64,000 bases of DNA, taken from the NCBI GenBank assembly GCA_002702575.1, contig PAAJ01000012.1, positions 41,386-105,385 on the forward strand, read 5' to 3'. Below the pieces are notes generated by a model, which did no database searches, was not told where the DNA came from, and saw only the letters and a list, made by a program, of their open reading frames with translations. The translations under genes and the position numbers were made by a program. This stretch comes from Phycisphaerae bacterium. Lineage in GTDB: Bacteria > Planctomycetota > Phycisphaerae > Phycisphaerales > SM1A02. Shown in pieces: positions 47,158 through 63,019 of the stretch (positions within the stretch are counted from its first letter, which is position 1; every line of letters begins with the position of its first letter).

Positions 47158-48879
47158 TCATTGATCGGCTGAAGCCGGCCCTTCGGGATCTGAGCCATTC
47201 ATCCTGCGGACTTCATGTACCTGGTTGGCGGTGAGGTCGCCGAATGATCCACGAGTTCCATCGGGCCAGAGGATTTCGACCGCTTCCAGACGATCCGCCG
47301 GGCCCAGGCCGATGTGGATTCTGGGGTCATTAGCCGCGAAGTAGCTGTGGGCCGTCTGGACAGGTCTTGTGATCGTGCGTTCACCCAGCTGGCCGGTCAG
47401 AACCGCTCCGATGGCATCCTGCCCATGTTCATTCAGGACACGGATCACACACCAGTTGCCTGGCGAAGCGACGACATTGCGATAGAGATTTGCGGGAGCA
47501 TCTCGATTGACGACCAGGACATCCACAAGTCCGTCATCGTCAAGATCACCAAAGACCGCTGCGCGACTTGTGCGATGAAGCTTCGCTGATGTTCCACCCG
47601 AGGGTTTGACCATCTCGAAACGCCCGCCTGGTGTTCCCCGCAGGAGAAGATCTTCCTGTGCATACGGATCATCGCTTTTGGAATCTGCACGACGTTGAAC
47701 ATGGCCGGTTGCTTCATAGAGATCAAGATGGCCGTCGTTGTCGAGATCGATCCATCCAAGTCCGAATCGGGTGTATGAACTCGTGGCTCGCTTGACACCT
47801 TTTCTCGCCGTGGCATCGATGAAATAGTCGCCCTGATTCAGAAACATCGAATCGGATTCATTCACCAGGTTGCAGACGACGAGATCCAGGTCACCATCAT
47901 CGTCAAGATCCGTGCTCCCGACGCCCATGCCGGCCTTCTCCTTGCCGTCCTCGTCCATGGCGCAGCCGGCCCGCATGCCGACATCCAGGAATGTTCCATC
48001 GCCCTGATTGCGCCACATCGTGTCAGGCTTGCCGTCATTGGCAATGAAGATGTCCATGTGGCCATCCCCGTCGTAATCTCCAGTGGTGATTCCAAGCGCC
48101 GTGCGATTCTGGGTCTTGATACCGGCGGCCTTGCTGACATCCTCGAACGTTCCGTCTCCGCGATTCCGATAGAGCAGGTCCGATGCGGCGACCGGATAGT
48201 TGCCGGGGGCGCAGTAGTCTTCCTTGCCAAGGCTGGAGTAGCAGGTGATTTCCGTTTCCGGTGACCATTCCAGATACTTGCCGACATAGAGATCGAGATG
48301 GCCGTCGGCGTCATAGTCGACGAAAGCCGTAGCGGAACCCCAGCCGGTATCGCCAAGGCCTGCTGCTTCAGTCGCATCCACGAAGCGTCCGCCGTCATTC
48401 CGCAGCAAGGTGTCTCGACCGACATTGGTGATGTAGAGGTCCGTATCACCATCATTGTCATAGTCACCTGTCGTCACGCTCATTCCGTAGCCACGATCAT
48501 CCGCACCAGCGGCGCCCGGTACTTCGACAAAGTTCCAGTTGCCGTCATTGCGAAAGAGTTGGTTGGGCAGATTGTCCTGTTGGCCTTGTCTGAGGATCTG
48601 TCCGCCTTGCAGGAAGTACAGATCCAGATCGCCGTCACGATCGTAGTCGATCATTGCGGCGCCGCCACCAATGATTTCAGGGAGGTTGAAATCACCGTCA
48701 GCACCGGACTGCCACGTGAACTCGAGCCCGGACTGCTTGGCGACATCCTTGAACCAGGGCTCGGCTGTGACTTGGACGGCCGGCCTGGTTGCTCCGGTTG
48801 TGTCACTTTCCGAGTCGCCACATCCACTGAATGAGAACGCGATCAAAGCCAGGATCAGATGGGGGATTCGAGAAGTCAT
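47158..48879 (-). CDS. CRTAC1-family lipoprotein (FG-GAP repeats + ASPIC/UnbV)
   Basis: Lipobox FSFSGCGDSE; DYDRDGDLDLYFL, DYDNDGDTDLYIT, DYDADGHLDLYVG repeats; ASPIC/UnbV DAIGAVLTGQLGERTITRPVQTAHSYFAANDPRIHIGLGPADRLEAVEILWPDG. Confidence 0.92.
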   Translation of the reverse strand: MTSRIPHLILALIAFSFSGCGDSESDTTGATRPAVQVTAEPWFKDVAKQSGLEFTWQSGADGDFNLPEIIGGGAAMIDYDRDGDLDLYFLQGGQILRQGQQDNLPNQLFRNDGNWNFVEVPGAAGADDRGYGMSVTTGDYDNDGDTDLYITNVGRDTLLRNDGGRFVDATEAAGLGDTGWGSATAFVDYDADGHLDLYVGKYLEWSPETEITCYSSLGKEDYCAPGNYPVAASDLLYRNRGDGTFEDVSKAAGIKTQNRTALGITTGDYDGDGHMDIFIANDGKPDTMWRNQGDGTFLDVGMRAGCAMDEDGKEKAGMGVGSTDLDDDGDLDLVVCNLVNESDSMFLNQGDYFIDATARKGVKRATSSYTRFGLGWIDLDNDGHLDLYEATGHVQRRADSKSDDPYAQEDLLLRGTPGGRFEMVKPSGGTSAKLHRTSRAAVFGDLDDDGLVDVLVVNRDAPANLYRNVVASPGNWCVIRVLNEHGQDAIGAVLTGQLGERTITRPVQTAHSYFAANDPRIHIGLGPADRLEAVEILWPDGTRGSFGDLTANQVHEVRRMNGSDPEGPASADQ

Positions 48880-50273
48880 GGGGTCTTGTCCGGCTCTTCA
48901 GGTTGCTGGCTGAACCGTTTCTGAAGTTCAAGCAGAACGGGATGGCCCGGAGAGACGGCAATGCCGTTCCTCAAGGCATCGATGGCGGCCAGGGTCTTGC
49001 CCTGGGCCTGTCGTGTTTCAGCCAGAATCGCCCATCCGATCGGATTCTTCGAATCCACGGCCGTGACCTGTTCGGCTTGTCGCTCACCATCCTCGAATCG
49101 TCCTGTTCGAAGCAGGGCATGGGCATACTGCAGTCGTTCTCTTGGATCCTGAACGCCAAGCTTGAAGGCTTCATCGAGTGCAACGACTGCTCTCTCAGGG
49201 CTGCCCTGGAGAAGGAAGAGTCGGCCAACCTGCAGGTGGGCCTGAGGCAGAAGCGGATTGAACTTGACGGCCGCCACGGCATGATTGAAGGCCAGGGAGC
49301 CCTGTTCGTCCTGGAGGTAGGCAATGGACAGGTTCAGATGGGTGACGCCGTTCTCCTCATCGAGGCGAAGTGCCTTCTTCAGTTCCAGGATCCATCGACT
49401 CGTGTTGCCTCTGATGCGATAGATCTCGCTTCGACGATGAATGAGATAGACCTCTTCGGGCCAGGTCTCCAGGCTGTCTGTGATCAATTCGGATGCCTTG
49501 TCGAGTTGGCCGACCTCGATGAGGCGATCAATGCGATTCATGGTGGCGTCCAGCCCCTGAGCGGCATCCTTGATCTCTTCATTCCATGGATCTGGATAAT
49601 CCGGCTGATTGGCTTCACCGTTGGCGAAGAACGCATCCGCCTGTGCCTTGTTGCCGGCTCGCTGATAGGCCTGGCCCAGCAGGTAGAAGATGTAGGGGTG
49701 CGTGGTCTTGCCTCGTAGTTCATTCAGGATGTCGATGGCTTCATCGATCTTGTCGAGTGCCATCAGGGTTCTGGCGAGCGCGATGTAGCCCCCGGCGTTG
49801 TTGGGATCCAGTCTGATTGCTTCCCGTGCCAGAGGTTCAGCCTGCTGCGGGCGACCCATGTCCAGTTCCCAGATGGCCGGTCGCCACCAGCTTGGTGCAA
49901 AGGAGCCGTTCAATTCGCGTGATCGTGCTGCGGCAGACAACGCGTCCTCGTATTGGCCGCTTTCCTCGAGGGCGAGGGCCAGCCAGTACCACTGCCTGGC
50001 TTCATTCGGGGAGGCGTCGACGATCTGACGCCATGACTGGATCGATTCATCCAGGAGCTCATTGGCCTGGTAGATCTTCGCAAGCTCGATCCTGGCCTTG
50101 AGATCGGCAGGGTTGGCTTCAATCGCTGCGAGCTGCTGGTCGATGGCCTTGCGGACTTCGCCCTGAACGACTTCCTGATTGGCCGGACTCGGTGGAGGCG
50201 GCATGTTCGATCCGGGCTCAGAACATCCGATCAGGATCAGGCAGGGGATCAGCAGTGTGCACAGAAGTTTCAT
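48876..50273 (-). CDS. TPR-repeat lipoprotein
   Basis: Start MKLLCTLLIPCLILIGCSEPG; tandem TPRs (ARIELAKIYQANELLDESIQSWRQIVDASPNEARQWYWLALALEESGQYEDAL...). 4-nt overlap with the CRTAC1 gene. Confidence 0.9.
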   Translation of the reverse strand: MKLLCTLLIPCLILIGCSEPGSNMPPPPSPANQEVVQGEVRKAIDQQLAAIEANPADLKARIELAKIYQANELLDESIQSWRQIVDASPNEARQWYWLALALEESGQYEDALSAAARSRELNGSFAPSWWRPAIWELDMGRPQQAEPLAREAIRLDPNNAGGYIALARTLMALDKIDEAIDILNELRGKTTHPYIFYLLGQAYQRAGNKAQADAFFANGEANQPDYPDPWNEEIKDAAQGLDATMNRIDRLIEVGQLDKASELITDSLETWPEEVYLIHRRSEIYRIRGNTSRWILELKKALRLDEENGVTHLNLSIAYLQDEQGSLAFNHAVAAVKFNPLLPQAHLQVGRLFLLQGSPERAVVALDEAFKLGVQDPRERLQYAHALLRTGRFEDGERQAEQVTAVDSKNPIGWAILAETRQAQGKTLAAIDALRNGIAVSPGHPVLLELQKRFSQQPEEPDKTP

Positions 50274-50338
50274 GTCCAGATGATACTGCCCCGGGCCGAT
50301 GGGGCCGGAGGCGTATCTGCGGGGTACCATGACATGTG

Positions 50339-51325
50339 ATGGCCAGCATCCCCTATGCCGCAGCGTGCCAGACGGCGTTTGAATCGCCCCGGCACCGAGA
50401 CCAGATTGGTGAGCGAACGGCTCGAATGATCGGCATGGTCGAACAGACCATTGTCGGTTACGAGCCTTTCTTCGATGTCCGTTTACTGGTGTTTCCGGAG
50501 TTCGCGCACTCGGTTCCGATTCATGATTCCGTAGACAAGTTGCGTCGAGATCTCGCAGTTGAGGTCCCCAACGAGCACATCGATGCCTATGTGAAGGTGT
50601 GTCGTAAGCATGGTTGCTGGATCCAGACCGGATCCTTTCTGGAGATCGACCCGGCTCTGGGAGATGACATCATCTTCAATACGACGATGTTGGTTGGTCC
50701 CGAGGGGCCACTGCTGAAGTATCGGAAGGTGAATCCATGGATTCCCTGGGAAGTCCATGCTTCGCCACACGACATTGATCCGACCGGTGATCATTTTCCT
50801 GTTGCCGATACCGAGATCGGCCGCATCGGAGTGGCGACCTGTTACGACTGGCTCTTTCCTGAAAGCATTCGCCAGATCGCATTCAATGGTGCGGAGATCA
50901 TCTGCCGGATTTCCGCTTACATGGATCCCTGGGGTGCCACGCCACCCATGGACTGGTGGACAGTCATCAATCGAGCGCGAGCCATAGAAAACCGGGTCTT
51001 CGTGGTCGCTGCCAATCAAGGTGCTTCCATGTCGGACTATCCTCCGTTCTCCTGGCCCGGTGGGAGCATGGTCGTGGACTATGACGGCCGGATCCTGTCC
51101 CAGGCGGACTCGGGTCCGGGGGAGAAGGTGGTCGTTGCCCCGATCGACGTCCGAGCCTTGCGGGAAGAGCGGGCCCGTCGAAGAGGTCATGACATGCAGG
51201 CGCACTATCGTGCAGAGGCGCATGCCTATGCTTCAAGGCCATCCTTGAAACCAGCAGATTCCCATCCCATCACGATCCAGTCCCTCAACGACAGAATCGA
51301 CGAAGCCAGGAGCCAGGAGCCATGA
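50339..51325 (+). CDS. Carbon-nitrogen hydrolase (nitrilase/amidase family)
   Basis: LLVFPEF (Glu), KYRKVNPW (Lys), IGVATCYDWLFPE (Cys), NRARAIENRVFVVAANQG. Confidence 0.92.
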   Translation: MASIPYAAACQTAFESPRHRDQIGERTARMIGMVEQTIVGYEPFFDVRLLVFPEFAHSVPIHDSVDKLRRDLAVEVPNEHIDAYVKVCRKHGCWIQTGSFLEIDPALGDDIIFNTTMLVGPEGPLLKYRKVNPWIPWEVHASPHDIDPTGDHFPVADTEIGRIGVATCYDWLFPESIRQIAFNGAEIICRISAYMDPWGATPPMDWWTVINRARAIENRVFVVAANQGASMSDYPPFSWPGGSMVVDYDGRILSQADSGPGEKVVVAPIDVRALREERARRRGHDMQAHYRAEAHAYASRPSLKPADSHPITIQSLNDRIDEARSQEP

Positions 51326-54300
51326 TCAGGTCTGTTTCAGTTGCATCGCTTCTCGTGTTCGGTCTGCTGGCAAGCTGTGGCCAGGATGAGATGGGGAATG
51401 AGGCTCCTGTCGCCAAGAAGCTGACCGACGAAGCAATTGCCCAGAACAATCGGGGCGTCGGGCTGATGGGCAGCTTTGATTATGACGGAGCCTGGCAGAC
51501 GTTCAGTCCACTTGCAGAGCAGTACCCGGACAACCTCCAGTTGCAGGTCAATCTGGCGATCTCTCAGCTGAATCGGCAGCAGGAGGGTGATGAAGATCGT
51601 GCGTTGGAGATCCTGGAGGGCGTGCTCCAGAAGGATCCCGAGCATCTCAACGCGCTGTATGTCGCGGGGGTCCTGCAGACCAACAACGGCAACACGCCTG
51701 AATCTCACGAACGCTTTCGAGTCGTCGCCGAGCGGGATCCCGAGGACGCCTATGCGGCGTACTTCACAGGACAGACTCTGTTGCAGATGGATCGTGCCGA
51801 AGAAGCATTGGAGTGGTACGAACGTGCCATGTCGCTGGATCCCTATCTTCGCAGTGCAACGTACGGAGCGGCTCAGGCTGCACGACGGCTCGGCAAGAGG
51901 GATGAATCCGGGCTCTATTTGGAGCAGTTCCAGGCGATGGCGGAAAACCCGCGAGCTCGACTGGCGGAGATCAAGTACACACGCATGGGGCCACGTGCCG
52001 AGGTGAAGGTCCTCGGAGAGGATCTCGCCATGGCGTCGGTGAAGCCATCAGGACCCTTGTGGTCTTTGTACAACTGGATTCATCAAAAGAAATTCATAGG
52101 CGAAACAATGCCCAATGTGACCGCCTGTGATATCGACCTGGACGGCAAGGTCGAGGTCTTCATAGTCGGGGTGCACCAAGCCAATGACAACAGATCATCC
52201 CGTGTATACAAGCACAAGCCTGATCGTGGCTGGATGATGGACTCAAGACCTGCTCTGTGTGCCGTGGATGATGTGAATACCGTCCTCTGGGGAGATGTTG
52301 ACGGGAATGGTTGGCCCGATGCCTACCTGTGTCGAAAAGGTGGCAACCAGCTCTGGTTGCAGGATGATGGTCAATGGAAGGTGGAGCTTTCGATTGAGGC
52401 GGCTGAGGGTATGCCTCGAGACACTGTTGATGGTGCGATCTTTGATGCGGACCATGATGGTGATCTTGACATCTTCGCGGTCAATGCTGATGGTTCCAAT
52501 GTCCTGTTGAACAACAATCGTGACGGTACTTGGAGGCAGGTCGGCAGTGAAGAGGGACTTCCGACGGGTGATCACGGCTCACGACAGATCGTCGTAGCGG
52601 ATCTTGATAACGATCGTGACCTCGATCTTGTGATCATCAATGAGACGGCCCCCAATGAGGTCTATCTCAACGATCGACTGTGGCGATACCAGAAGGCGCC
52701 CGGTTTTCTGGCCTTTGAGTCGATGCCGATCACGGCGGCCATCGCCGGAGATATCGACTCGGATGGCCAGGTGGAGTTGATCAGTTTCTCACAGGACAGG
52801 GAAGTCCATGTGTGGCAGAAACAAAATGATTGGTTGCCGAAGCTGATCAGATCTTTTTCATCTGATGATGGATCAGATGGAGCAGGTCAATCAATGTTGA
52901 CACTGCTGGATGTTGATGGCTCGGGCAAGAAGACGCTGCTGGTATCAGATTCAGGCAAGGTGGTGTCGGTCAATCCAAACTTGCCCGACCAGAGCGGTGA
53001 GTTGAATGATCCGCTGTTCCTCAATTGTCTAACGATGACTCCGGTGATTTTCGAGCCAGGTAAGGGTTATTCTCTCTTCGCCATCACCGGAAACGCGACT
53101 GGCAAGGAATTGAAAATGAAGATCCTGGACCCTGGTTCTGGGCGTTATCCCTTTGTGGATGTTTCATTCACCGGGAAGCATGACGAAGGTCAGTCCATGC
53201 GATCCAATGCCAGCGGCATCGGGACGCGCTACGCCGCACGGAGTGGGTCCCGTTGGCACATGGGTCGTGTTCTGAGGGATGATTCAGGGCCGGGTCAGAA
53301 TCTGCAGCCAGTAGCCATCGGATTGGGGCCCCAGCCACGGCTGGACTTCCTGGCCATCGAATGGTCCGATGGTGTCTACCAGACGGAACTGGGGCTCTCC
53401 GAATCCACCGTCATCGAAGAAACCCAGAGGCAGCTTTCCAGTTGTCCTGTCCTCTTTGTTCGTGATGGTGATGGACAGATGTTTGTCAGCGATCTGTTGG
53501 GAGTCGGGGGGATCGGTTTTCGTACCGGACGAGATTCGGTGGTCACGCCGCGTCCATGGGAGCGGTTCCTGATGCCCGAGTCGGTTCTCATGGAACATGA
53601 TGGCCGATATGAAATCACGATTGCCGAGCCGATGGAGGAGTCGTGCTATCTCGATTCGCTCCGACTGGTGAGATGGTTCCTGCCGCCAGGCTGGTCGATG
53701 ACTCTGGATGAACGCATGGGAACGGGGGCGCCACTTCCCACTGGAGATCCGGTCTTCTATCGAACGGCGCTGAAGCCATCGATGTGCAAAGACAACATGA
53801 GTGGCGAGATCACGGAGGCCCTGCTTGAAGTCGATGGTGTAGCAGTGGAACCGGTGGATCATGATGTTCGCTTCATGGGCCGACTTGCACGGAATCATCA
53901 GCTGGAGTTGTCATTCGATCAGCCGCTTGATTCCCTGCCTGGAACACCGGTCCTGGTCCTCGACGGTTGGGTGGAGTATCCGTATTCACAGACCAACTTT
54001 GCTGCCTGGCAGGCCGGTGCGACCTACGATCCGCCGACGATTGAAGCTCGTGGCGAAGACGGAACGTGGATCGTAGTCGCTGAAAAAGCGGGGTATCCAG
54101 CCGGCATGCCACGGCAGATGTCCTTGCCGCTTGCATCACTTCCACAAGGTGCGGATGCGCTTCGAATCACGAGCAATCTTGAGATCTATTGGGATGCCGC
54201 CATGGTGATCGGAAGTGAGCCTTGCCCGGGAGCCCGGAAGCAGTCCCTGCCGCTGTACTCGGCGGTTCTGTTTGATGCCGGGTATCCCGAGCGTCGCAAC

Positions 54301-54663
54301 GGTCCTCAGAAAAGGCCTGGATTCGATTGGTCGAGGCGGGCGCCGCTCTGGGATACGAGGTTCCAGCGCGGAATGCACAGCTTGCATGGCGATGTCTTTC
54401 CATTGATCGAGAAGACCGATTCGGCGCTGGCGATCTTCGGGCCGGGAGAAGCGGTCGAATGTGCCTTCACTGCCGTGCCGCCGCCATCGGGCCTGGGAGC
54501 AGGGGGTTCCTTCCGATTCGTTCTGGAAATCGACGGATGGTGCAAGGACAAGGATCTCTTTACTCAGGATGGTGATACGATCGAGCCGCTTCCGGTCGAT
54601 CTTGCCGGAGAAGCACAACGCCTTCATGAGCAGTACAACACTCGATGGATGGGTGGTTACTGA
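51322..54663 (+). CDS. Large lipoprotein fusing TPR, FG-GAP and ASPIC/UnbV (CRTAC1-type) regions
   Basis: LLASCGQDEMG lipobox; N-terminal TPRs; DIDLDGKVEVFIV, DVDGNGWPDAYLC, DADHDGDLDIFAV, DLDNDRDLDLVII; ASPIC-like ASGIGTRYAARSGSRWHMG...IGLGPQPRLDFLAIEWSDG; ATGA overlap with the nitrilase. Confidence 0.85.
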   Translation: MIRSVSVASLLVFGLLASCGQDEMGNEAPVAKKLTDEAIAQNNRGVGLMGSFDYDGAWQTFSPLAEQYPDNLQLQVNLAISQLNRQQEGDEDRALEILEGVLQKDPEHLNALYVAGVLQTNNGNTPESHERFRVVAERDPEDAYAAYFTGQTLLQMDRAEEALEWYERAMSLDPYLRSATYGAAQAARRLGKRDESGLYLEQFQAMAENPRARLAEIKYTRMGPRAEVKVLGEDLAMASVKPSGPLWSLYNWIHQKKFIGETMPNVTACDIDLDGKVEVFIVGVHQANDNRSSRVYKHKPDRGWMMDSRPALCAVDDVNTVLWGDVDGNGWPDAYLCRKGGNQLWLQDDGQWKVELSIEAAEGMPRDTVDGAIFDADHDGDLDIFAVNADGSNVLLNNNRDGTWRQVGSEEGLPTGDHGSRQIVVADLDNDRDLDLVIINETAPNEVYLNDRLWRYQKAPGFLAFESMPITAAIAGDIDSDGQVELISFSQDREVHVWQKQNDWLPKLIRSFSSDDGSDGAGQSMLTLLDVDGSGKKTLLVSDSGKVVSVNPNLPDQSGELNDPLFLNCLTMTPVIFEPGKGYSLFAITGNATGKELKMKILDPGSGRYPFVDVSFTGKHDEGQSMRSNASGIGTRYAARSGSRWHMGRVLRDDSGPGQNLQPVAIGLGPQPRLDFLAIEWSDGVYQTELGLSESTVIEETQRQLSSCPVLFVRDGDGQMFVSDLLGVGGIGFRTGRDSVVTPRPWERFLMPESVLMEHDGRYEITIAEPMEESCYLDSLRLVRWFLPPGWSMTLDERMGTGAPLPTGDPVFYRTALKPSMCKDNMSGEITEALLEVDGVAVEPVDHDVRFMGRLARNHQLELSFDQPLDSLPGTPVLVLDGWVEYPYSQTNFAAWQAGATYDPPTIEARGEDGTWIVVAEKAGYPAGMPRQMSLPLASLPQGADALRITSNLEIYWDAAMVIGSEPCPGARKQSLPLYSAVLFDAGYPERRNGPQKRPGFDWSRRAPLWDTRFQRGMHSLHGDVFPLIEKTDSALAIFGPGEAVECAFTAVPPPSGLGAGGSFRFVLEIDGWCKDKDLFTQDGDTIEPLPVDLAGEAQRLHEQYNTRWMGGY

Positions 54664-54675
54664 TGGGAGTCGGGC

Positions 54676-55140
54676 ATGCGTGATCAGGACCAGCGGCAAT
54701 CCGTGCTCCTCGATGTCCTCAGAAGGAATCAGGTCCATTCACAGGTGGAGTTGCTGAACCTGCTGAGTGTGGAAGGCGTGGAGGTCACCCAGGCGACCCT
54801 TTCCCGGGACCTTCGTTCCATCGGAGTCGTGAAGGGGCCAGAGGGGTACGCGGCACCCGAATCCGCGGGTCTGGACAAGGCGGCCAGAAAACGTCTGGGC
54901 ACTCAGATGAAATCCCATCTCACGGGCATTCAGGCAGCGGATTCGATGCTGGTCCTCCGGACCCGGCCAGGCCATGCAGGAATCATGGCCGCTGAGATTG
55001 ACTCACTCGGCATGGCCTCCGTTCTGGGGACCGTCGCCGGCCGGGACACCATCTTCGTGGCGACCTCCATGCCCGGGCATGCCAGGCGTCTGCTGGCGGA
55101 ATTCGTCAAGTTGAGTGGCAGGGCGGATCTGAAGGCCTGA
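54676..55140 (+). CDS. argR: Arginine repressor ArgR
   Basis: RQSVLLDVLRRNQVHSQVELLNLLSVEGVEVTQATLSRDLRSIGVVK; LVLRTRPGHAGIMAAEIDSLGMASVLGTVAGRDTIFV. Confidence 0.92.
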   Translation: MRDQDQRQSVLLDVLRRNQVHSQVELLNLLSVEGVEVTQATLSRDLRSIGVVKGPEGYAAPESAGLDKAARKRLGTQMKSHLTGIQAADSMLVLRTRPGHAGIMAAEIDSLGMASVLGTVAGRDTIFVATSMPGHARRLLAEFVKLSGRADLKA

Positions 55141-55260
55141 GAGGGCTATGATTCAGGCCTGAATAATCTCAATTTTTCAACGGAATAATGGTCCTGTTCA
55201 TGCATGAGTGATGAATAATCGCCTTTGTTCCCCACCGGCAGCCGATAGGGTTCTTGGCCC

Positions 55261-58149
55261 ATGCCCAGTCCCAGATCCACACCTGAGAATTCAAAGCCGG
55301 CATCGCCTTCAAGGAGGCGATACCGGCCTGTGATCGGCCCACGGCTGAAGATCCTGCTCATCGTGATCTTCGCCCTGTTTGCTTTGATGGTCGTCAATTC
55401 GGTCTACCTGGTGGCGATCAGGATGATGGGGCTGGCGACCCAGGATTCCTATGAGAACTGGTTCTATCTGATCATGTTCCTGGCCCATCTGGTCGTGGGC
55501 CTGTTGCTGCTTGTGCCGTTCATCATCTTCGGAGCAGCCCATATTCGAAATGCCCACAATCGGCCCAATCGCAGGGCTGTCCGTGCGGGCTACGCGCTGT
55601 TCATCAGCGCCATCATCCTTTTGGTGACAGGCGTTGTCCTGATGCGGGTGGACGGGATCATCGACATCCGGGATGAAACAGCGCGATCGATCATCTGGTG
55701 GATCCATGTCCTGGTACCGCTGATCGTGGTCTGGCTCTTCATTCTCCATCGTCTCGCTGGCCGTCGCATCCGCTGGAAGGTCGGCATGGCCTGGAGTGCC
55801 GTGGCAGCAGGCTTCGCCATCGTGATGGTCGTCTTCCAGTCACAGGATCCACGGCAGTGGAACATCGCGGGCAATCCCGAGGGTGACCAGTACTTCTACC
55901 CGTCCCTGGCCAGAACGGTTTCCGGAGATTTCATTCGAGCGGAAGTTCTGCAGAACGACGAGTACTGCCTCGAGTGTCATGCTGACATCCATGATTCATG
56001 GATGCATTCCGTCCACAAGTTCTCGTCTTTCAACAATCCGGCATATCTGGCATCCGTCAAGGAAACCCGTGAGATGAGCATGGAGCGGGATGGTGACGTG
56101 AACGCCTCGCGTTTCTGTGCGGGCTGTCATGATCCGGTTCCATTCTTCAGTGGTGCCTTCAACGATCCGGACTACGACATGGTGCATGATCCGACGGCCC
56201 ATGCCGGGATCACCTGCACGGTGTGCCACGTGATCAGTCACGTCAATTCACCGAAGGGCAACGCGGACTACACGATCGACGAGCCGCAGCATTATCCCTT
56301 TGCGTTTTCGGACAATCCCGTGCTGTCATGGGTGAACAAGCAGCTCGTCAAGGCCAAGCCGGAGTTCCACAAGAAGACCTTCCTCAAGCCGTTGCATCAG
56401 ACCGAGGATTTCTGCGGTACGTGCCACAAGGTTCACCTTCCCGTCGAACTGAATGACTACAAGTGGCTGCGAGGTCAGAACCACCTGGATTCCTATCGCC
56501 TCAGCGGTGTTTCCGGGCATGGCATCATGAGTTTCTACTACCCGCCCGTCGCCGAGGTGAACTGCAACGACTGCCACATGCCTCTGATGCCCTCAACCGA
56601 TTTCGGTGCTCAGGTGCGTGACGACTCGGGAGTTCCCAAGGTGCATGATCACATGTTCCCATCGGCCAATACGGCGATGCCGATGATGGTCAACATGCCC
56701 CGGGCGGAAGAGGCGATCGAGAAGCATCGCGAATTCCTCGAGGGGGTGATGCGTGTCGACATCTTCGGGCTCAAGAAGGGCGGCGAGATCGACGGTGAAC
56801 TGCTGGGGCCGATCCGGCCTGAGATCCCTGAGCTTGATCGTGGTGAGGATTATCTCGCTGAGGTGGTCATACGAACGGTCAAGATGGGCCATCTCTTTAC
56901 TCAGGGCACGGCGGACTCCAATCAGGTCTGGATGGATGTGACGGTGACCTGTGGCGACCGTGTCATCGGTAGAAGTGGTGCCATGGACGAGGATGGCCAG
57001 GTTGATCCATGGTCGCACTTCGTCAACAGTTTCGTGATCGATCGCGATGGCAATCGAATCGCCCGTCGAAATGCCCAGGATATCTTCACGTCGCTCTACA
57101 ACCATCAGATCCCGCCGGGGGCTGCTGATTCCGTCCATTACCGGTTCCATGTGCCCGATGATTGTGAAGGTCCGGTGAAGATCCACGCCGCTCTGAAGTA
57201 CCGCAAGTTCGATACGGAGTACATGCGTTTCGTGCATGGTGATGCAGCCTGGGTGAATGAGCTGCCTGTGACCTTGCTGGCCGAGGACGTGGTGGAGCTG
57301 CCCGTGAAGGGTGGCGTGCCTGTCTCGCCATCGGAAGAGATGACGGTGCCGGAATGGGTTCGATGGAACGACTATGGCATCGGACTGTTCCGCAAGGGCG
57401 ATCTGGGAGAACTCCGTGATGCCGAAGAGGCGTTTCTTGAAGTGGAAAATCTGGGCCGTTCCGAAGGTCCGATCAATCTGGCTCGTGTCTACCTGAAGGA
57501 AGGTCGTGTCACTGAAGATGCTCCAGAGGCGCTCACACGGGCGGCGAACATGACACATCCTGCCAGGGAATGGCATCTGCTCTGGTTCGGCGGGCTCGTC
57601 GACAAGCAGAACGGGCGACTGGATGCCGCCATCGACAAGTTCAGGCAGGTTGTGGAAGGCGGCTTCGAACAGGCGAAGGGCCGAGGCTTCGATTTCTCTG
57701 AAGATTGGCGTGTGCTCAACGAACTGGGCAACACGCTCTATCAGCGTGCTCGACAGGAGCGTGGCCCTGCCAAGCGGGAGAAGCGTGAAGCCCTGATGAG
57801 AGAGGCGGCCGAGGTCTTCGAGGCCAGCCTCGAGCTGGATCCTGAGAATGCGGATGCCCATTACAACCTCAAGCAGGTCTGGGCGGATCTGGATGACATG
57901 GAGCGTTCTTCCGTGCATGCAGAGAGGCATGCCACGTACAAGATCGATGACAATGCCAGGGATTTCGCGATCTCCGAGGCACGTCGCAAGTATCCTGCTG
58001 CCAACAAGGCCTCGGAGGCCGTGGTGATCTATGAATTGCTTCCTCCTGAAGACGTCCGTCCAACCGAATCGGAACCGGATCTTCCTGAGGACAAGCCCGA
58101 CTCACAGGTTTCAGCTGAATCAGCCGGCAGCAAGAAAGATGAATCATGA
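55261..58149 (+). CDS. Multiheme cytochrome c with N-terminal cytochrome b-like TM domain and C-terminal TPRs
   Basis: Five hydrophobic helices; CLECH, CAGCH, CTVCH, CGTCH, CNDCH; C-terminal TPRs (SLELDPENADAHYNLKQV). Confidence 0.88.
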   Translation: MPSPRSTPENSKPASPSRRRYRPVIGPRLKILLIVIFALFALMVVNSVYLVAIRMMGLATQDSYENWFYLIMFLAHLVVGLLLLVPFIIFGAAHIRNAHNRPNRRAVRAGYALFISAIILLVTGVVLMRVDGIIDIRDETARSIIWWIHVLVPLIVVWLFILHRLAGRRIRWKVGMAWSAVAAGFAIVMVVFQSQDPRQWNIAGNPEGDQYFYPSLARTVSGDFIRAEVLQNDEYCLECHADIHDSWMHSVHKFSSFNNPAYLASVKETREMSMERDGDVNASRFCAGCHDPVPFFSGAFNDPDYDMVHDPTAHAGITCTVCHVISHVNSPKGNADYTIDEPQHYPFAFSDNPVLSWVNKQLVKAKPEFHKKTFLKPLHQTEDFCGTCHKVHLPVELNDYKWLRGQNHLDSYRLSGVSGHGIMSFYYPPVAEVNCNDCHMPLMPSTDFGAQVRDDSGVPKVHDHMFPSANTAMPMMVNMPRAEEAIEKHREFLEGVMRVDIFGLKKGGEIDGELLGPIRPEIPELDRGEDYLAEVVIRTVKMGHLFTQGTADSNQVWMDVTVTCGDRVIGRSGAMDEDGQVDPWSHFVNSFVIDRDGNRIARRNAQDIFTSLYNHQIPPGAADSVHYRFHVPDDCEGPVKIHAALKYRKFDTEYMRFVHGDAAWVNELPVTLLAEDVVELPVKGGVPVSPSEEMTVPEWVRWNDYGIGLFRKGDLGELRDAEEAFLEVENLGRSEGPINLARVYLKEGRVTEDAPEALTRAANMTHPAREWHLLWFGGLVDKQNGRLDAAIDKFRQVVEGGFEQAKGRGFDFSEDWRVLNELGNTLYQRARQERGPAKREKREALMREAAEVFEASLELDPENADAHYNLKQVWADLDDMERSSVHAERHATYKIDDNARDFAISEARRKYPAANKASEAVVIYELLPPEDVRPTESEPDLPEDKPDSQVSAESAGSKKDES

Positions 58150-60017
58150 GTGAGCCTGAGGGCGTTGAGCCTCAGAACCAGGACGAGACTTCATTGCATG
58201 AAGACATCGTCCAGGACGACGAGATCATCGGGGTCGTCTTCCGCTGGTCGATCCTGGTGGTCTTCTGCCTGGGCGGAGTCGGCGCGATCATCTGGCTGCT
58301 TTTCTCGATGGGTTCATCGCAGGAAGAGCAGATCATCGAGAAGGAAGTTGTGGCCCCGGAAGCCCTCGTGCCCGACCTGGCTGTTCTGCCGGACGTCTCC
58401 TTCCAGAACATCACGCGTGATGTGGGCGTTGACTTCGTTCACCAGTCTGGAGCCGAGGGTGAAAAGCTCCTGCCCGAGACGATGGGGTCGGGTGTCGCGT
58501 TCTTCGATTACGACAACGACGAGGACCAGGATCTGCTGCTGGTGAACAGCATGCGATGGCCACACGCTTCCCAGGCGGATGAGGCCAGCCCCATGGCGCT
58601 CTATCTCAACGACGGTTCAGGATCGTTTACAGACGTCTCGGAATCGGTTGGTTTGACTGATTCCTTCTACGGAACCGGTGTGGCCGTGGGGGATGTCGAT
58701 GGAGATGGTCGGCGTGATCTGTTCATTGCCGCCTATGGCCCCAATCGCCTCTACCTGAATACCCCTGATGGCTTCGTGGATGCCACCCAGCAGGCGGGGG
58801 TGGCCGGTGATGCTGGCGAGTGGAGCAGCAGTCCTGCCTTTCTGGATTACGACCGGGATGGCGACCTGGATCTGTTCGTGCCCAATTACATCAACTGGAC
58901 CCGCGAGAAGGACCTCTCGCTGAACTTCACGCTCAACGGGACGGATCGGGCCTACGGGCCGCCCAAGCAGTACGAGGGCAGTCAGCCCCGTCTGTATCGC
59001 AACCAGGGTGACGGCACCTTCGAGGAGGTCTCCGAGGCCGCTGGAATGCACGTGATGAATCCAGCCACGGGTGTCCCTGTCGGGAAATCACTCGCGGTCG
59101 TCCCGGTCGATCTGGATCGTGATGGCTGGATCGATCTTGTGGTCGCCAACGACACGACCAGGAACTTCCTGTATCGCAACCTGGGAGATGGCCGGTTCGA
59201 GGAAATCGGAGTCGTCTCCGGTGTCGCCTACGACGATCGGGGGCAGGCAACAGGCGCCATGGGCATCGATGCGGCTCACTATCGCAATGACGATTCCTTC
59301 GGCATCGGCATCGGCAACTTCGCCAACGAAATGACGAGCTTCTATGTCGGAGAAGGTGATCTGTTCTCCGATGAAGCCATTCTCGAGGGGATCGGCTCGC
59401 CGACGCGGCCACTGCTTTCCTTCGGTCTGTTCTTCTTTGATTACGACCTGGATGGCCGCCTCGACATGTTCCAGACGAACGGTCATCTCGAGGAAGAGAT
59501 CAACGAGATCCAGTCCTCGCAGCATTACCGACAGCCGGCACAGCTTTTCTGGAATGCCGGTCCGGATCGTCCGGCCTGTTACGAGATTGTTCCATCCGAG
59601 ACGGCAGGGGACCTCGTGATCCCCATCGTTGGTCGCGGCGCGGCGTATGCCGATATCGACGCGGACGGAGATCTTGATGTCATCGTCACGCAGGCAGGGG
59701 ATCGCCCCTTGCTTCTTCGCAATGATCAGGTCCTTGGTCATCACTGGCTGCGGGTGAGGCTCGAGGATTCCACCTCCGCGAATCGAGATGCCATCGGAGC
59801 CTGGATCGAGTTGACTGCTGACGGGATCACCCAGAGGCGACAGGTCATGCCCACGAGGTCCTATCTTTCACAGGTTGAGCTTCCCGTGACCTTCGGCCTG
59901 GGTGATGCCAAGTCGATTGAATCCTTGGCGGTGACCTGGCCGGATGGTCAGGTTCAGAACTTCCCTGTGACCGGGCTTGCGATCGATCAACAGCACACGC
60001 TTCAACGAGCACGTTGA
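58146..60017 (+). CDS. Membrane-anchored CRTAC1-family protein (FG-GAP + ASPIC/UnbV)
   Basis: ATGA overlap with the cytochrome gene; N-terminal TM; DYDNDEDQDLLLV, DVDGDGRRDLFIA, DYDRDGDLDLFVP repeats; ASPIC NRDAIGAWIELTADGITQRRQVMPTRSYLSQVELPVTFGLGDAKSIESLAVTWPDG. Confidence 0.92.
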   Translation: MSEPEGVEPQNQDETSLHEDIVQDDEIIGVVFRWSILVVFCLGGVGAIIWLLFSMGSSQEEQIIEKEVVAPEALVPDLAVLPDVSFQNITRDVGVDFVHQSGAEGEKLLPETMGSGVAFFDYDNDEDQDLLLVNSMRWPHASQADEASPMALYLNDGSGSFTDVSESVGLTDSFYGTGVAVGDVDGDGRRDLFIAAYGPNRLYLNTPDGFVDATQQAGVAGDAGEWSSSPAFLDYDRDGDLDLFVPNYINWTREKDLSLNFTLNGTDRAYGPPKQYEGSQPRLYRNQGDGTFEEVSEAAGMHVMNPATGVPVGKSLAVVPVDLDRDGWIDLVVANDTTRNFLYRNLGDGRFEEIGVVSGVAYDDRGQATGAMGIDAAHYRNDDSFGIGIGNFANEMTSFYVGEGDLFSDEAILEGIGSPTRPLLSFGLFFFDYDLDGRLDMFQTNGHLEEEINEIQSSQHYRQPAQLFWNAGPDRPACYEIVPSETAGDLVIPIVGRGAAYADIDADGDLDVIVTQAGDRPLLLRNDQVLGHHWLRVRLEDSTSANRDAIGAWIELTADGITQRRQVMPTRSYLSQVELPVTFGLGDAKSIESLAVTWPDGQVQNFPVTGLAIDQQHTLQRAR

Positions 60018-60257
60018 TCCGGGATCCTGTTCCTTAGACGGTTTCCTGCCATCTGCCACGCGGGCCATTGGAGAACCAGTGTTCTCTTGGCCTGATCAGC
60101 TCCCACTCAGGGTCTCATCTATCGACAACCGGGTTTGCGAGTTGCCGTGGCGATCTTCCTGGGCATGCCCAGCTGCCAGGTTCATGACCAGTTCAGAAGC
60201 GAACGCCGACATGAACCCATCCATGTCATGGGTTTGTCAGGGTCTAGGCAAAAAGAA

Positions 60258-60287
60258 CATCCCCCCGATCCGAAGATCGGGGGGATG
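60258..60287 (-). terminator. Intrinsic terminator for the 60344..63019 gene
   Basis: CATCCCCCCGATC-CGAA-GATCGGGGGGATG 13-bp stem; on the minus strand it is followed by TTCTTTTT. Confidence 0.8.
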
Positions 60288-60343
60288 CATAAGGTGCGTT
60301 TGGAGTTGATCGTCAGAGGACGATCTCATCCGTCAGACACGAC

Positions 60344-63019
60344 TCATGGCGTGATGCAGTAGTTGACAGCGAAGGTTTCTTCGATGTAACCAGTGCCGTC
60401 GTTGCCATATGAGGTGCCTTCGTCAGCTGACATCCACAGGAACCAGCATTCGCCCTGGCCGCCCGAGTTGGACTCGACCATGAGTGAGTTGAGCTGGGCA
60501 CCGTTGTAGCCAACGTCTGGGAATGTCCAGCCGCTCAGCGGGTAGACGCCAGCGTACACGATGGTAGTGGCTTCGTAGTTGCTGATTGTGCTGAAGTATT
60601 CAAAGGTACCACTTGAAGGTGGAACCTCGGTTGACAGACCCATTGCCATGACGAGTGACTCGCCATTGTCAGTGCATGCGCTGAATCCACCGGAGTAGAC
60701 CAGGCCGAGACCGTAAACGGTCACGTCGCTGACTGTGCTGGCGTCGATTGCAGCTGCACGCTGGAAGCCGCCACCAACATCTGAAGTACCAGCAGTCCAG
60801 GCACCGTCTACCGTGGTTGGATTTGCACCGTTACCGGTAGTGCAATTCAGAACCTGTGGGCAGGTGGTGTCTGCACATGCCTGCTCCTGGAACCAGGAAC
60901 CGCCGAGTGCGTCGCAATCGGAGGAAGTCTGGCCATCGATGCAGGACTCGTCTGCAAGGCAGCAAGCGCCTTCGACGTCAGCACCAACGCAGTTCAGAGT
61001 CATTGTGCCAGGACCAGTGGCGCCCTGCCATCCACCGATGCGGATGTAGAGAGTGTCGCCAGCTGAAACTGGGAGACCGTAAATGCCGGAGTAGTAGCTC
61101 TGGCAGCCAGTCTCGACTGATGCATCACCGTTACAAGCAACCTGTGCGAGGCTGCCGCAGTCGCTACCGGAGTAGACGACGAGTGATGTGTCATATGAAG
61201 CTGCATCGCAGAGGCTGATGTCGATTGTGCCGTCAGCATCGATGGTGGTTGAGAACCATACATCTGGGCTTGCGGTCCAGTCGAGATACGTGCCGTCGCA
61301 CTGTGTGGCATCAGGCTCACCGAAACCACTGTCAGCAGCGGTCGATGTGTCGAATGCAGTGCTGCTTGGGCAATCAACAGCGATTGCATCTTCGCAAGTG
61401 TCATTGGAGGTACCGCACTCATAGGTAGCGCAGTCGCCTTCGTTGTAGACGCCGCCGAAGTCAGCGCAATCACTTGGAAGCAGTGAGAGGCAGTCCTCAC
61501 CGACGCAGCATGCACCTGTTACAGGAACATCACATGAGATGCTCAGGACGCCAGTGCCAGTAGCACCTTCGCTCCATGAACCAACACGGACGATGACGCT
61601 GTCGCCAGCGGTCATGTCGTATGCGAGCTCTGAAGTGAAGCCAGTGCAGCCAGTAGCATCATCGTTACAGGCGAGCTGGGTGCCATCACATGCGTCATAA
61701 AGAGCAATGATGGTGTCCACGTCGAACTGGCTGCATGTGCTGAGTGTGACTGTTCCGTCACACGTAGCGGTGTAGCTGTAGTACAGATCGTTGAAGATCT
61801 GAGGATCAGTCTGGGTGGTGCAGTCGTCAACAAGTGCTGGACCAGTCGTGGTTGCCAGGTTGTTGTCGATGCCGGTGTCACCATCGAAGATTTCGATAGC
61901 GCCAGAGCAATCGTTGTTGTCAGGAGCAGCTTCGCAGACGACGTCTGCACATGAAGTGCTGTCACCCTGGTAGGTGCCTGAGCAATCTTCTGGAGTTGCC
62001 TGGATGCAGGAAGCATCAGCAAGGCAGCAAGCACCACTGACGCATGCTGCACATGAGGAGCCCTGGCCGAGCCAGTCGCCGCCAGCATCGCCGCAATCAG
62101 CTTCTGTCTGATCTTCAGTACAGCCATCAACACCGAAGCAGCATGCGCCGCGTGGGGTGCAGTCCTGGCCGAACTGCTCGATGCAGGTCAGAAGGTCATC
62201 AACGTTGACAACGCAGTCGCCGTTAGGCAGTGGAGCGCAGTCGCCCTGAGGACGGCTCTCGCCGTTACCAACCTGGTTGAACGTTTCGATGATCGTCAGG
62301 ATGTCATCGACGCCAACGACTCCGTCAGGTACGCCGTTAGGACCACTGACGTCAGCCTGGCATGCTGCTGGAAGAGGCAGATCGCAAGGATCGCCGGTTC
62401 CACCAAGAACGCGGTAAGCAGCGTTGTTGGCAGCTTCCTGGATGGTGCCGAAGCCGAACCCGCCATTGGGGTTGGCCTGCCAGCACTGCAGGTTACCGAT
62501 CGTGGAGATCGCACAACCGGTCTGACCGTTGGTGCCGAACTCGTTGACAGGAATCATGCTGAAGCCAACCTGAGCACCGTTGCCAGCGTTCCAAGGAACG
62601 GTAGCTGCAACACCGATCAGGTCATAGCCTGCGAGTGTCCAGTTGGGATCAATATCAGGTGTACCAGCGTAATCGATGGAAGTCAGGTCACCAGCAAGGC
62701 TGATGCCACCATTGATAGGGCTGGAGTAGAAGTTGACCTGGAGACCGGTGATGCCTGCAGCACCTGTGTAGCCGTTCCAGCCACCAACGACCATCTGAGC
62801 GGATGTGCCAGAGTAGCCAGCGGTGTTGTCAAAGTCGTCAATGACACCGATGTCATAAACAGAGAACGAGGCCTCGAAGTACTGGTTAGCCAGGATGTTG
62901 GCCGGATCGATACTGGAACCATCGTCCAGACCAATCTGGTCCATCATCACGGCTGCGCCGCCCATGGCGGTACCAGCGGTGAGACCCAAAATACAAAGAC
63001 AAGACGGTAGAGTTTTCAT
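60344..63019 (-). CDS. Secreted Cys-rich multidomain protein with dockerin/EF-hand-like module
   Basis: Signal peptide MKTLPSCLCILGLTAGTAMGGA; dockerin-like GVPDGVVGVDDILTIIETFNQ...GDCVVNVDDLLTCIEQFG; four GACC-type Cys repeats. Confidence 0.85.
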   Translation of the reverse strand: MKTLPSCLCILGLTAGTAMGGAAVMMDQIGLDDGSSIDPANILANQYFEASFSVYDIGVIDDFDNTAGYSGTSAQMVVGGWNGYTGAAGITGLQVNFYSSPINGGISLAGDLTSIDYAGTPDIDPNWTLAGYDLIGVAATVPWNAGNGAQVGFSMIPVNEFGTNGQTGCAISTIGNLQCWQANPNGGFGFGTIQEAANNAAYRVLGGTGDPCDLPLPAACQADVSGPNGVPDGVVGVDDILTIIETFNQVGNGESRPQGDCAPLPNGDCVVNVDDLLTCIEQFGQDCTPRGACCFGVDGCTEDQTEADCGDAGGDWLGQGSSCAACVSGACCLADASCIQATPEDCSGTYQGDSTSCADVVCEAAPDNNDCSGAIEIFDGDTGIDNNLATTTGPALVDDCTTQTDPQIFNDLYYSYTATCDGTVTLSTCSQFDVDTIIALYDACDGTQLACNDDATGCTGFTSELAYDMTAGDSVIVRVGSWSEGATGTGVLSISCDVPVTGACCVGEDCLSLLPSDCADFGGVYNEGDCATYECGTSNDTCEDAIAVDCPSSTAFDTSTAADSGFGEPDATQCDGTYLDWTASPDVWFSTTIDADGTIDISLCDAASYDTSLVVYSGSDCGSLAQVACNGDASVETGCQSYYSGIYGLPVSAGDTLYIRIGGWQGATGPGTMTLNCVGADVEGACCLADESCIDGQTSSDCDALGGSWFQEQACADTTCPQVLNCTTGNGANPTTVDGAWTAGTSDVGGGFQRAAAIDASTVSDVTVYGLGLVYSGGFSACTDNGESLVMAMGLSTEVPPSSGTFEYFSTISNYEATTIVYAGVYPLSGWTFPDVGYNGAQLNSLMVESNSGGQGECWFLWMSADEGTSYGNDGTGYIEETFAVNYCITP

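What the first reader, a model, noticed from the sequence alone, without database searches (positions are those of the whole stretch)
47158..60017. Three CRTAC1 proteins, each paired with TPRs in a different architecture
Within 13 kb: (a) a CRTAC1 lipoprotein with a separate 4-nt-overlapping TPR lipoprotein (47158-50273); (b) TPR and CRTAC1 regions fused in one 1113-aa lipoprotein (51322-54663); (c) CRTAC1 overlapping a cytochrome that ends in TPRs (55261-60017). Split, fused and transferred forms of one pair are a Rosetta-stone argument that TPR and CRTAC1 parts work together in the envelope, perhaps with electron transfer.
Basis: partly seen in the sequence, partly recalled or inferred. Interest (0 to 1): 0.7.

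Follow-up and report, generated by a model that had tools for sequence, protein, structure and literature searches.

The report
Conserved CRTAC1–TPR–cytochrome envelope gene cluster
Three odd beta-propeller (CRTAC1) genes in this marine planctomycete-like genome turn out to be parts of one six-gene cluster, found again in unrelated phyla including a cultured Pseudoalteromonas, that probably builds an undescribed electron-transfer complex in the cell envelope held together by TPR scaffolds.

Summary
Around ASPIC/CRTAC1 genes in Planctomycetota, TPR domains are enriched: 34 of 71 genes carry a TPR in the same protein, in an adjacent gene or in an adjacent TPR-cytochrome. Adjacent TPR genes occur for 12/71 against 6/275 controls (p=1.6e-5); adjacent multiheme cytochromes for 10/71 against 1/275 (p=7e-7). 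The link holds in one Acidobacteriota genome (15/19) but not in one Verrucomicrobia genome (1/15, the cytochrome pair). The three window CRTAC1s are not recent copies re-wired with TPRs. They fall in three separate ortholog clades, each with a fixed partner, in one conserved cluster: CN-hydrolase – TPR/CRTAC1 fusion – [ArgR] – membrane cytochrome b/pentaheme c/TPR – CRTAC1, with a divergent TPR + CRTAC1 pair. All six recur together in cultured Pseudoalteromonas sp. P1-9. The cytochrome family spans several phyla, all 79 copies examined carry TPRs, and CRTAC1 follows directly in 61 of 69 testable loci. Best reading: a quinol-linked multiheme cytochrome complex with CRTAC1 propellers docked on TPR scaffolds. 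Substrate and physical assembly are untested. I found no paper describing it.

The parts
47158..48879 (-). crtA: CRTAC1-type protein (FG-GAP propeller + ASPIC/UnbV), weak lipobox FSGC at residue 20
   Evidence: ortholog clade with Pseudoalteromonas, Gemmatimonadota and betaproteobacterial copies; lipobox seen in 9 of 29 relatives by a simple pattern
48876..50273 (-). tprA: TPR lipoprotein (lipobox LIGC), translationally coupled (4-nt overlap) to crtA; ORF is open to 50330
   Evidence: TPR genes form the second most frequent neighbour family of the cytochrome (16 loci)
50336..51325 (+). nit: cytosolic carbon-nitrogen hydrolase, overlaps fusB by 4 nt
   Evidence: PF00795 E 1e-35; 55% identical ortholog directly upstream of the cytochrome in Pseudoalteromonas; 36 of 39 Planctomycetota genomes with it also have a fusB homolog
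51322..54663 (+). fusB: lipoprotein with N-terminal TPRs, FG-GAP propeller, degenerate ASPIC and a C-terminal beta domain
54676..55140 (+). ArgR-type arginine repressor inside the operon; present in a few close relatives only, probably a passenger
   Evidence: PF02863/PF01316; argR-family genes near the cytochrome in 6 loci
55261..58149 (+). cytC: 5-TM diheme cytochrome b-like anchor (invariant His 76, 94, 149, 163) + pentaheme cytochrome c + beta sandwich + C-terminal TPR superhelix
   Evidence: PF13435 over cut-off
58146..60017 (+). crtC: CRTAC1 propeller + ASPIC on one N-terminal TM anchor, 4-nt overlap with cytC
   Evidence: directly downstream of cytC in 61 of 69 testable loci

Best explanation
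The region encodes one conserved functional unit, a cell-envelope redox complex. cytC sits in the inner membrane: its TM bundle binds two b-type hemes and exchanges electrons with the quinone pool, passing them to or from a periplasmic pentaheme c domain. The C-terminal TPR superhelix of cytC, the TPR arm of fusB and the lipoprotein tprA act as scaffolds that hold the calcium-bound CRTAC1 propellers crtC, fusB and crtA at the periplasmic face and on lipid anchors, so that substrate binding or the next redox partner is positioned at the hemes. The cytosolic CN-hydrolase handles a nitrogen-containing (amide or nitrile) compound linked to the pathway. Shown by sequence: the parts, their order and coupling, cross-phylum conservation, distinct ortholog clades, conserved heme and His motifs, TPR and CRTAC1 folds (predicted). 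Inferred: physical complex, TPR-propeller docking, electron route and direction, periplasmic location, role of the hydrolase. Unknown: substrate.
For: Five-part cluster in Pseudoalteromonas (L276), Phycisphaerae (L228, L229) and Phycisphaerales; related CRTAC1-TPR-CRTAC1-fusB-cytC clusters in Acidobacteriota L218 and Latescibacterota L225. nit included in Pseudoalteromonas, L203, L263, and with fusB-cytC-crtC in L253 and L232. crtC next to cytC in 61/69. Separate clades for fus (99), crtC (99) and crtA (99) across phyla. Four invariant TM His and five invariant CxxCH in 27 sequences. Foldseek: cytC best hit pentaheme c552 5ze8, then TPR proteins; fusB best hit murine CRTAC1 9etn, then TPR proteins. 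TPR and heme neighbours enriched. Granulicella plasmid pACIX901 carries CRTAC1, pentaheme-TPR protein, cytochrome c, 2 CRTAC1 and TPR together.
Against: TPR-less multiheme cytochromes also neighbour CRTAC1 genes, so the TPR arm is not required for that pairing. Many genomes keep only cytC-crtC without fusB, tprA or crtA nearby (fusB-type within four genes in 25 of 79), so the full set is not obligatory. Verrucomicrobia CRTAC1s mostly lack TPR neighbours. The hydrolase link may be regulatory or metabolic only.
Confidence: 0.55

Rival explanations
1. Three lineage-specific duplicates: the CRTAC1 genes multiplied in this genome and picked up TPR partners by chance in a TPR-rich phylum.
For: CRTAC1 genes are numerous in Planctomycetota (206 of 292 genomes, many with more than five) and TPR proteins are common.
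Against: The three are in separate well-supported clades with orthologs in other phyla; TPR enrichment exceeds random loci of overlapping genomes; the same cluster recurs in Pseudoalteromonas.
Confidence: 0.04
2. A co-regulated but not physically joined set: genes for one pathway (for example breakdown or sensing of a nitrogenous compound) kept together by operon selection, with TPR and CRTAC1 parts acting separately.
For: Divergent transcription, optional members, a cytosolic CN-hydrolase and an ArgR in the unit.
Against: Repeated gene fusions of TPR with CRTAC1 in different arrangements and 4-nt overlaps of the pairs favour assembly.
Confidence: 0.25
3. An outer-membrane uptake or surface-binding system: TPR and CRTAC1 lipoproteins act like SusD-type substrate binders for TonB receptors, and the cytochrome is a side branch.
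For: In Acidobacteriota a CRTAC1-TPR pair is followed by a beta-barrel with a carboxypeptidase-regulatory domain (L286), and the Granulicella cluster abuts a TonB-dependent receptor and a glycoside hydrolase.
Against: No TonB receptor was recognised next to the window genes and none was identified among the recurrent neighbours of cytC in 80 loci (not all of those families were annotated); crtC carries a TM anchor, not a lipobox.
Confidence: 0.12

Closest known systems
Metazoan CRTAC1 (murine structure 9etn) / Pfam UnbV_ASPIC
   Same: FG-GAP propeller followed by an ASPIC domain; crtC matches by sequence (E 5e-18), fusB by fold
   Different: Bacterial proteins are lipid- or TM-anchored and associated with TPRs and cytochromes; fusB adds TPRs and a C-terminal domain
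Penta-heme cytochrome c552 of Thermochromatium tepidum (5ze8)
   Same: Best fold match of the pentaheme region of cytC (TM 0.60 on the target)
   Different: 17% identity; the c552 chain is about 385 residues, without the cytochrome b-like membrane part or the TPR superhelix
Hydrazine-synthase-like clusters with a CRTAC1 gene (PMC12758564)
   Same: A CRTAC1 family gene sits between or beside heme proteins, some with cytochrome c554 domains, in Planctomycetota and others
   Different: The passages read mention no TPR-cytochrome, TPR lipoprotein or CN-hydrolase; no hydrazine synthase homolog was identified among the window cluster proteins
Granulicella tundricola plasmid pACIX901 cluster (ACIX9_RS19980 to RS20005)
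   Same: CRTAC1, pentaheme-TPR protein, two more CRTAC1 and a TPR protein together
   Different: Cytochrome homolog is 28% identical and lacks the cytochrome b membrane part; TonB receptor next to it

Membership tests
CRTAC1 / ASPIC-UnbV proteins | FG-GAP repeats with Dx[DN]xDG calcium motifs | tested here: met
   PF13517 in all three; 7, 3 and 5 motifs in crtA, fusB and crtC
CRTAC1 / ASPIC-UnbV proteins | UnbV_ASPIC domain over Pfam cut-off | tested here: inconclusive
   met for crtA and crtC; fusB 14.3 of 23.4 bits, though its Pseudoalteromonas ortholog passes (25.4 bits) and fold search gives CRTAC1 first
Cytochrome c554-type multiheme cytochrome | several CxxCH heme motifs and PF13435 | tested here: met
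   five CxxCH invariant in 27 sequences; PF13435 22.7 bits over cut-off 20.8
Diheme membrane cytochrome b | four His ligands in TM helices | tested here: met
   His 76, 94, 149, 163 invariant and within predicted TM helices; heme binding itself not tested
Diheme membrane cytochrome b | Pfam match to a known cytochrome b family | tested here: not met
   no significant match of the TM region; the term cytochrome b-like is therefore by analogy
Hydrazine synthase | alpha and beta/gamma subunits | tested here: not met
   none among Pfam or NCBIfam matches of the cluster proteins
TPR scaffold | tandem TPR helices | tested here: met
   Pfam TPR matches in tprA and fusB; weak in cytC by Pfam, clear in a tandem profile (E 1e-18) and fold

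The most novel reading that the evidence does not exclude
An undescribed type of quinol-linked envelope redox complex, spread across phyla, in which CRTAC1 propellers are docked on TPR scaffolds around a cytochrome b/pentaheme c core; it would give the bacterial ASPIC/CRTAC1 family a concrete function.
Probability: 0.4. Interest if true: 0.85.

Novelty: new variant of a known kind. Interest (0 to 1): 0.62.

Why it matters
I found no function described for bacterial CRTAC1/ASPIC proteins, although planctomycetes and acidobacteria can carry dozens of them. A conserved cluster that ties three of them to a membrane cytochrome, TPR scaffolds and a CN-hydrolase, and that occurs intact in a cultured Pseudoalteromonas, gives concrete partners and a tractable host in which their role can be tested. 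The abundance of TPR-CRTAC1 pairs then suggests one shared design (propeller on scaffold) reused with different enzymes.

Tried and rejected
Chance adjacency in a TPR-rich phylum: rejected by control loci and by independent Pfam scans of neighbours against random genes. Recent tandem duplication: rejected by the tree. Hydrazine synthase membership: no matches. First TPR seeds by regular expression found nothing; replaced by an iterated profile that recovers tprA, fusB and cytC. The first greedy gene caller lost eight focal genes to shadow ORFs; replaced by a composition-scored caller. Literature searches found no description of the cluster. Sigma-70 promoter scan found nothing. Plasmid search gave only the distant Granulicella copy.

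Full report
OBSERVATION. On the minus strand tprA (48876-50330, probable start 50273 before lipobox LIGC) overlaps crtA (47158-48879) by 4 nt. On the plus strand a carbon-nitrogen hydrolase (nit, 50336-51325) overlaps fusB (51322-54663) by 4 nt; an ArgR (54676-55140) follows; then cytC (55261-58149) overlaps crtC (58146-60017) by 4 nt. Pfam gives FG-GAP_3 in all three CRTAC1s, ASPIC in crtA and crtC, TPRs in tprA and fusB, and Cytochrome_C554 plus weak TPRs in cytC. The ASPIC domain of fusB is sub-threshold. cytC has five TM segments, five CxxCH motifs and C-terminal TPRs. The window genome holds five ASPIC genes; three lie here, p about 5e-4 for such clustering under random placement. A fourth, on contig C1, is again a CRTAC1 lipoprotein overlapping a TPR lipoprotein gene by 4 nt. 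The fifth is cut by a contig start.

IS TPR ADJACENCY ABOVE BACKGROUND? UnbV_ASPIC occurs in 206 of 292 Planctomycetota genomes. I fetched 60 loci around strong ASPIC hits and 40 arbitrary-position loci from overlapping genomes, called genes and scored TPRs with an iterated profile. Of 71 ASPIC genes, 17 carry TPRs themselves, 12 have an adjacent co-directional TPR gene without hemes, 6 an adjacent TPR-multiheme cytochrome and 4 an adjacent TPR-less multiheme cytochrome; 34 have a TPR in some form. Controls: adjacent TPR 6/275 (p 1.6e-5), adjacent multiheme protein 1/275 (p 7e-7), TPR in the protein itself 10/176 against 17/71 (p 1.5e-4), adjacent ASPIC 0/275 against 12/71. Independent Pfam scans agree: TPR_19 in 13 of 65 adjacent neighbours, Cytochrome_C554 in 6; no TPR family among the commonest families of 88 random genes. 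Caveats: loci came from the best-scoring ASPIC hits, some genomes gave two or three loci, and the gene caller is ad hoc. In one Acidobacteriota genome 15 of 19 ASPIC genes have a TPR partner, against 2 of 46 distant genes being TPR genes; in one Verrucomicrobia genome only 1 of 15, the cytC-crtC pair.

ONE CLUSTER, NOT THREE REWIRED COPIES. cytC homologs occur in 113 of 292 Planctomycetota genomes, about 60 of them full-length at 42-69% identity. A scan of bacterial and archaeal genomes gave 80 loci (limit) in Planctomycetota, Acidobacteriota, Verrucomicrobiota, Latescibacterota, Gemmatimonadota and Proteobacteria (MAG labels may contain binning errors, but Pseudoalteromonas sp. P1-9, Rhodopirellula and Roseiconus are named isolates). 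All 79 parsed cytC proteins carry TPRs; a CRTAC1 gene follows directly in 61 of 69 testable loci; a fusB-type gene lies within four genes in 25. The set crtA, tprA, fusB, cytC, crtC occurs together in several Phycisphaerales loci, in Phycisphaerae L228 and L229 and in Pseudoalteromonas L276. Acidobacteriota L218 and Latescibacterota L225 have the related order CRTAC1-TPR-CRTAC1-fusB-cytC; their CRTAC1s group outside the window's crtA clade. In Pseudoalteromonas the gene just upstream of cytC is a nit ortholog, 55% identical, and fusB is 40% identical over its full length; its only other ASPIC hit is in an 80-aa open frame. nit-fusB-cytC-crtC also occurs in L253 and L232. In Planctomycetota 36 of 39 genomes with nit have a fusB homolog, against 105 of 292 overall (p 4e-15; genomes are related, so the p-value is optimistic). 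After CRTAC1 proteins, TPR lipoproteins are the most frequent neighbours of cytC, then nit and ArgR.

PHYLOGENY. A tree of 103 propeller-ASPIC regions (quick method, SH-aLRT only) puts fusB proteins on one side of a branch (99), crtC proteins in one clade with two unassigned rows (99), and the window crtA in a 13-row clade (99) with the Pseudoalteromonas, Gemmatimonadota and betaproteobacterial copies. The window fusB itself was left out of the tree because its ASPIC domain was too weak for the row filter; it is placed with the fusB family by full-length similarity. A second TPR-CRTAC1 fusion group sits near the crtA side, apart from fusB: a separate fusion. A third arrangement, ASPIC-AhpC/TSA-TPR with FG-GAP in the neighbouring gene, occurs in L106. 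Repeated fusion in different orders is the strongest Rosetta-stone evidence.

STRUCTURE. cytC model: mean pLDDT 81.6. Best PDB match is the pentaheme cytochrome c552 5ze8 (target TM 0.60), followed by TPR proteins. Across 27 homologs His 76, 94, 149 and 163 are invariant within predicted TM helices, as expected for two bis-His b hemes, and five CxxCH are invariant; His 252, 370, 379, 392 and 464 are further candidates for distal ligands. No Pfam cytochrome b family matches, so cytochrome b-like is by analogy. fusB model: mean pLDDT 84.1, best match murine CRTAC1 9etn, then TPR proteins such as MamA. crtC has a TM anchor with no lipobox in 58 of 59 homologs, whereas fusB and tprA often have lipoboxes (23 of 44 and 8 of 11 by a simple pattern).

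MECHANISM. Most likely a quinone-linked envelope redox complex: b hemes, pentaheme c, and CRTAC1 propellers held by TPR superhelices. The heme motifs, predicted folds, gene coupling and conservation are shown; the complex, electron path, substrate and the role of nit are inferred. TPR-less multiheme cytochromes next to CRTAC1 genes show that the TPR arm is not essential for that pairing. In Acidobacteriota a CRTAC1-TPR pair can precede an outer-membrane beta-barrel, and the Granulicella plasmid cluster lies beside a TonB receptor, so a surface-binding role remains open for the lipoprotein pairs.

KNOWN OR NEW. The nearest published context found is a CRTAC1 family gene beside homologs of hydrazine synthase subunits (PMC12758564). 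No paper found describes the TPR-cytochrome/CRTAC1 cluster (most subscription journals are not held). All domain families are known; the combination appears undescribed.

Noticed in passing
L106 232-9463 (G101): Three ASPIC-AhpC/TSA(redoxin)-TPR type proteins alternate with separate FG-GAP proteins: domains of CRTAC1 split over neighbouring genes, with a redoxin added (Pfam checked on one).
   Followed up: partly
L123 3329-9755 (G147): FG-GAP propeller and ASPIC domain lie in alternating adjacent genes, twice in a row.
   Followed up: partly
L303 5837-15737 (Granulicella tundricola plasmid pACIX901): Plasmid-borne CRTAC1 / pentaheme-TPR / cytochrome c / CRTAC1 / CRTAC1 / TPR cluster beside a TonB-dependent receptor.
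   Followed up: partly
G000 contigs C25/C30 and C3/C31: FG-GAP hits with identical scores on pairs of contigs suggest duplicated or strain-redundant contigs in this assembly (contamination 8.2%).
   Followed up: no
G000 C13:1-699 (L009): ASPIC gene cut off by the contig start; its upstream context, and any TPR partner, is missing.
   Followed up: no
window 60257-63019: Large secreted protein with a T9SS-associated galactose-binding-like domain, conserved beside crtC in five loci (window included), with a 14-bp hairpin plus T-run between the two convergent genes.
   Followed up: no
L294, L298, L300-L302 (Verrucomicrobia G294): Family of about 1250-aa ASPIC proteins with 9-11 calcium motifs and no adjacent co-directional TPR genes.
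   Followed up: no
window 54676-55140: ArgR-type repressor inside the operon between fusB and cytC; present in only a few close relatives.
   Followed up: partly
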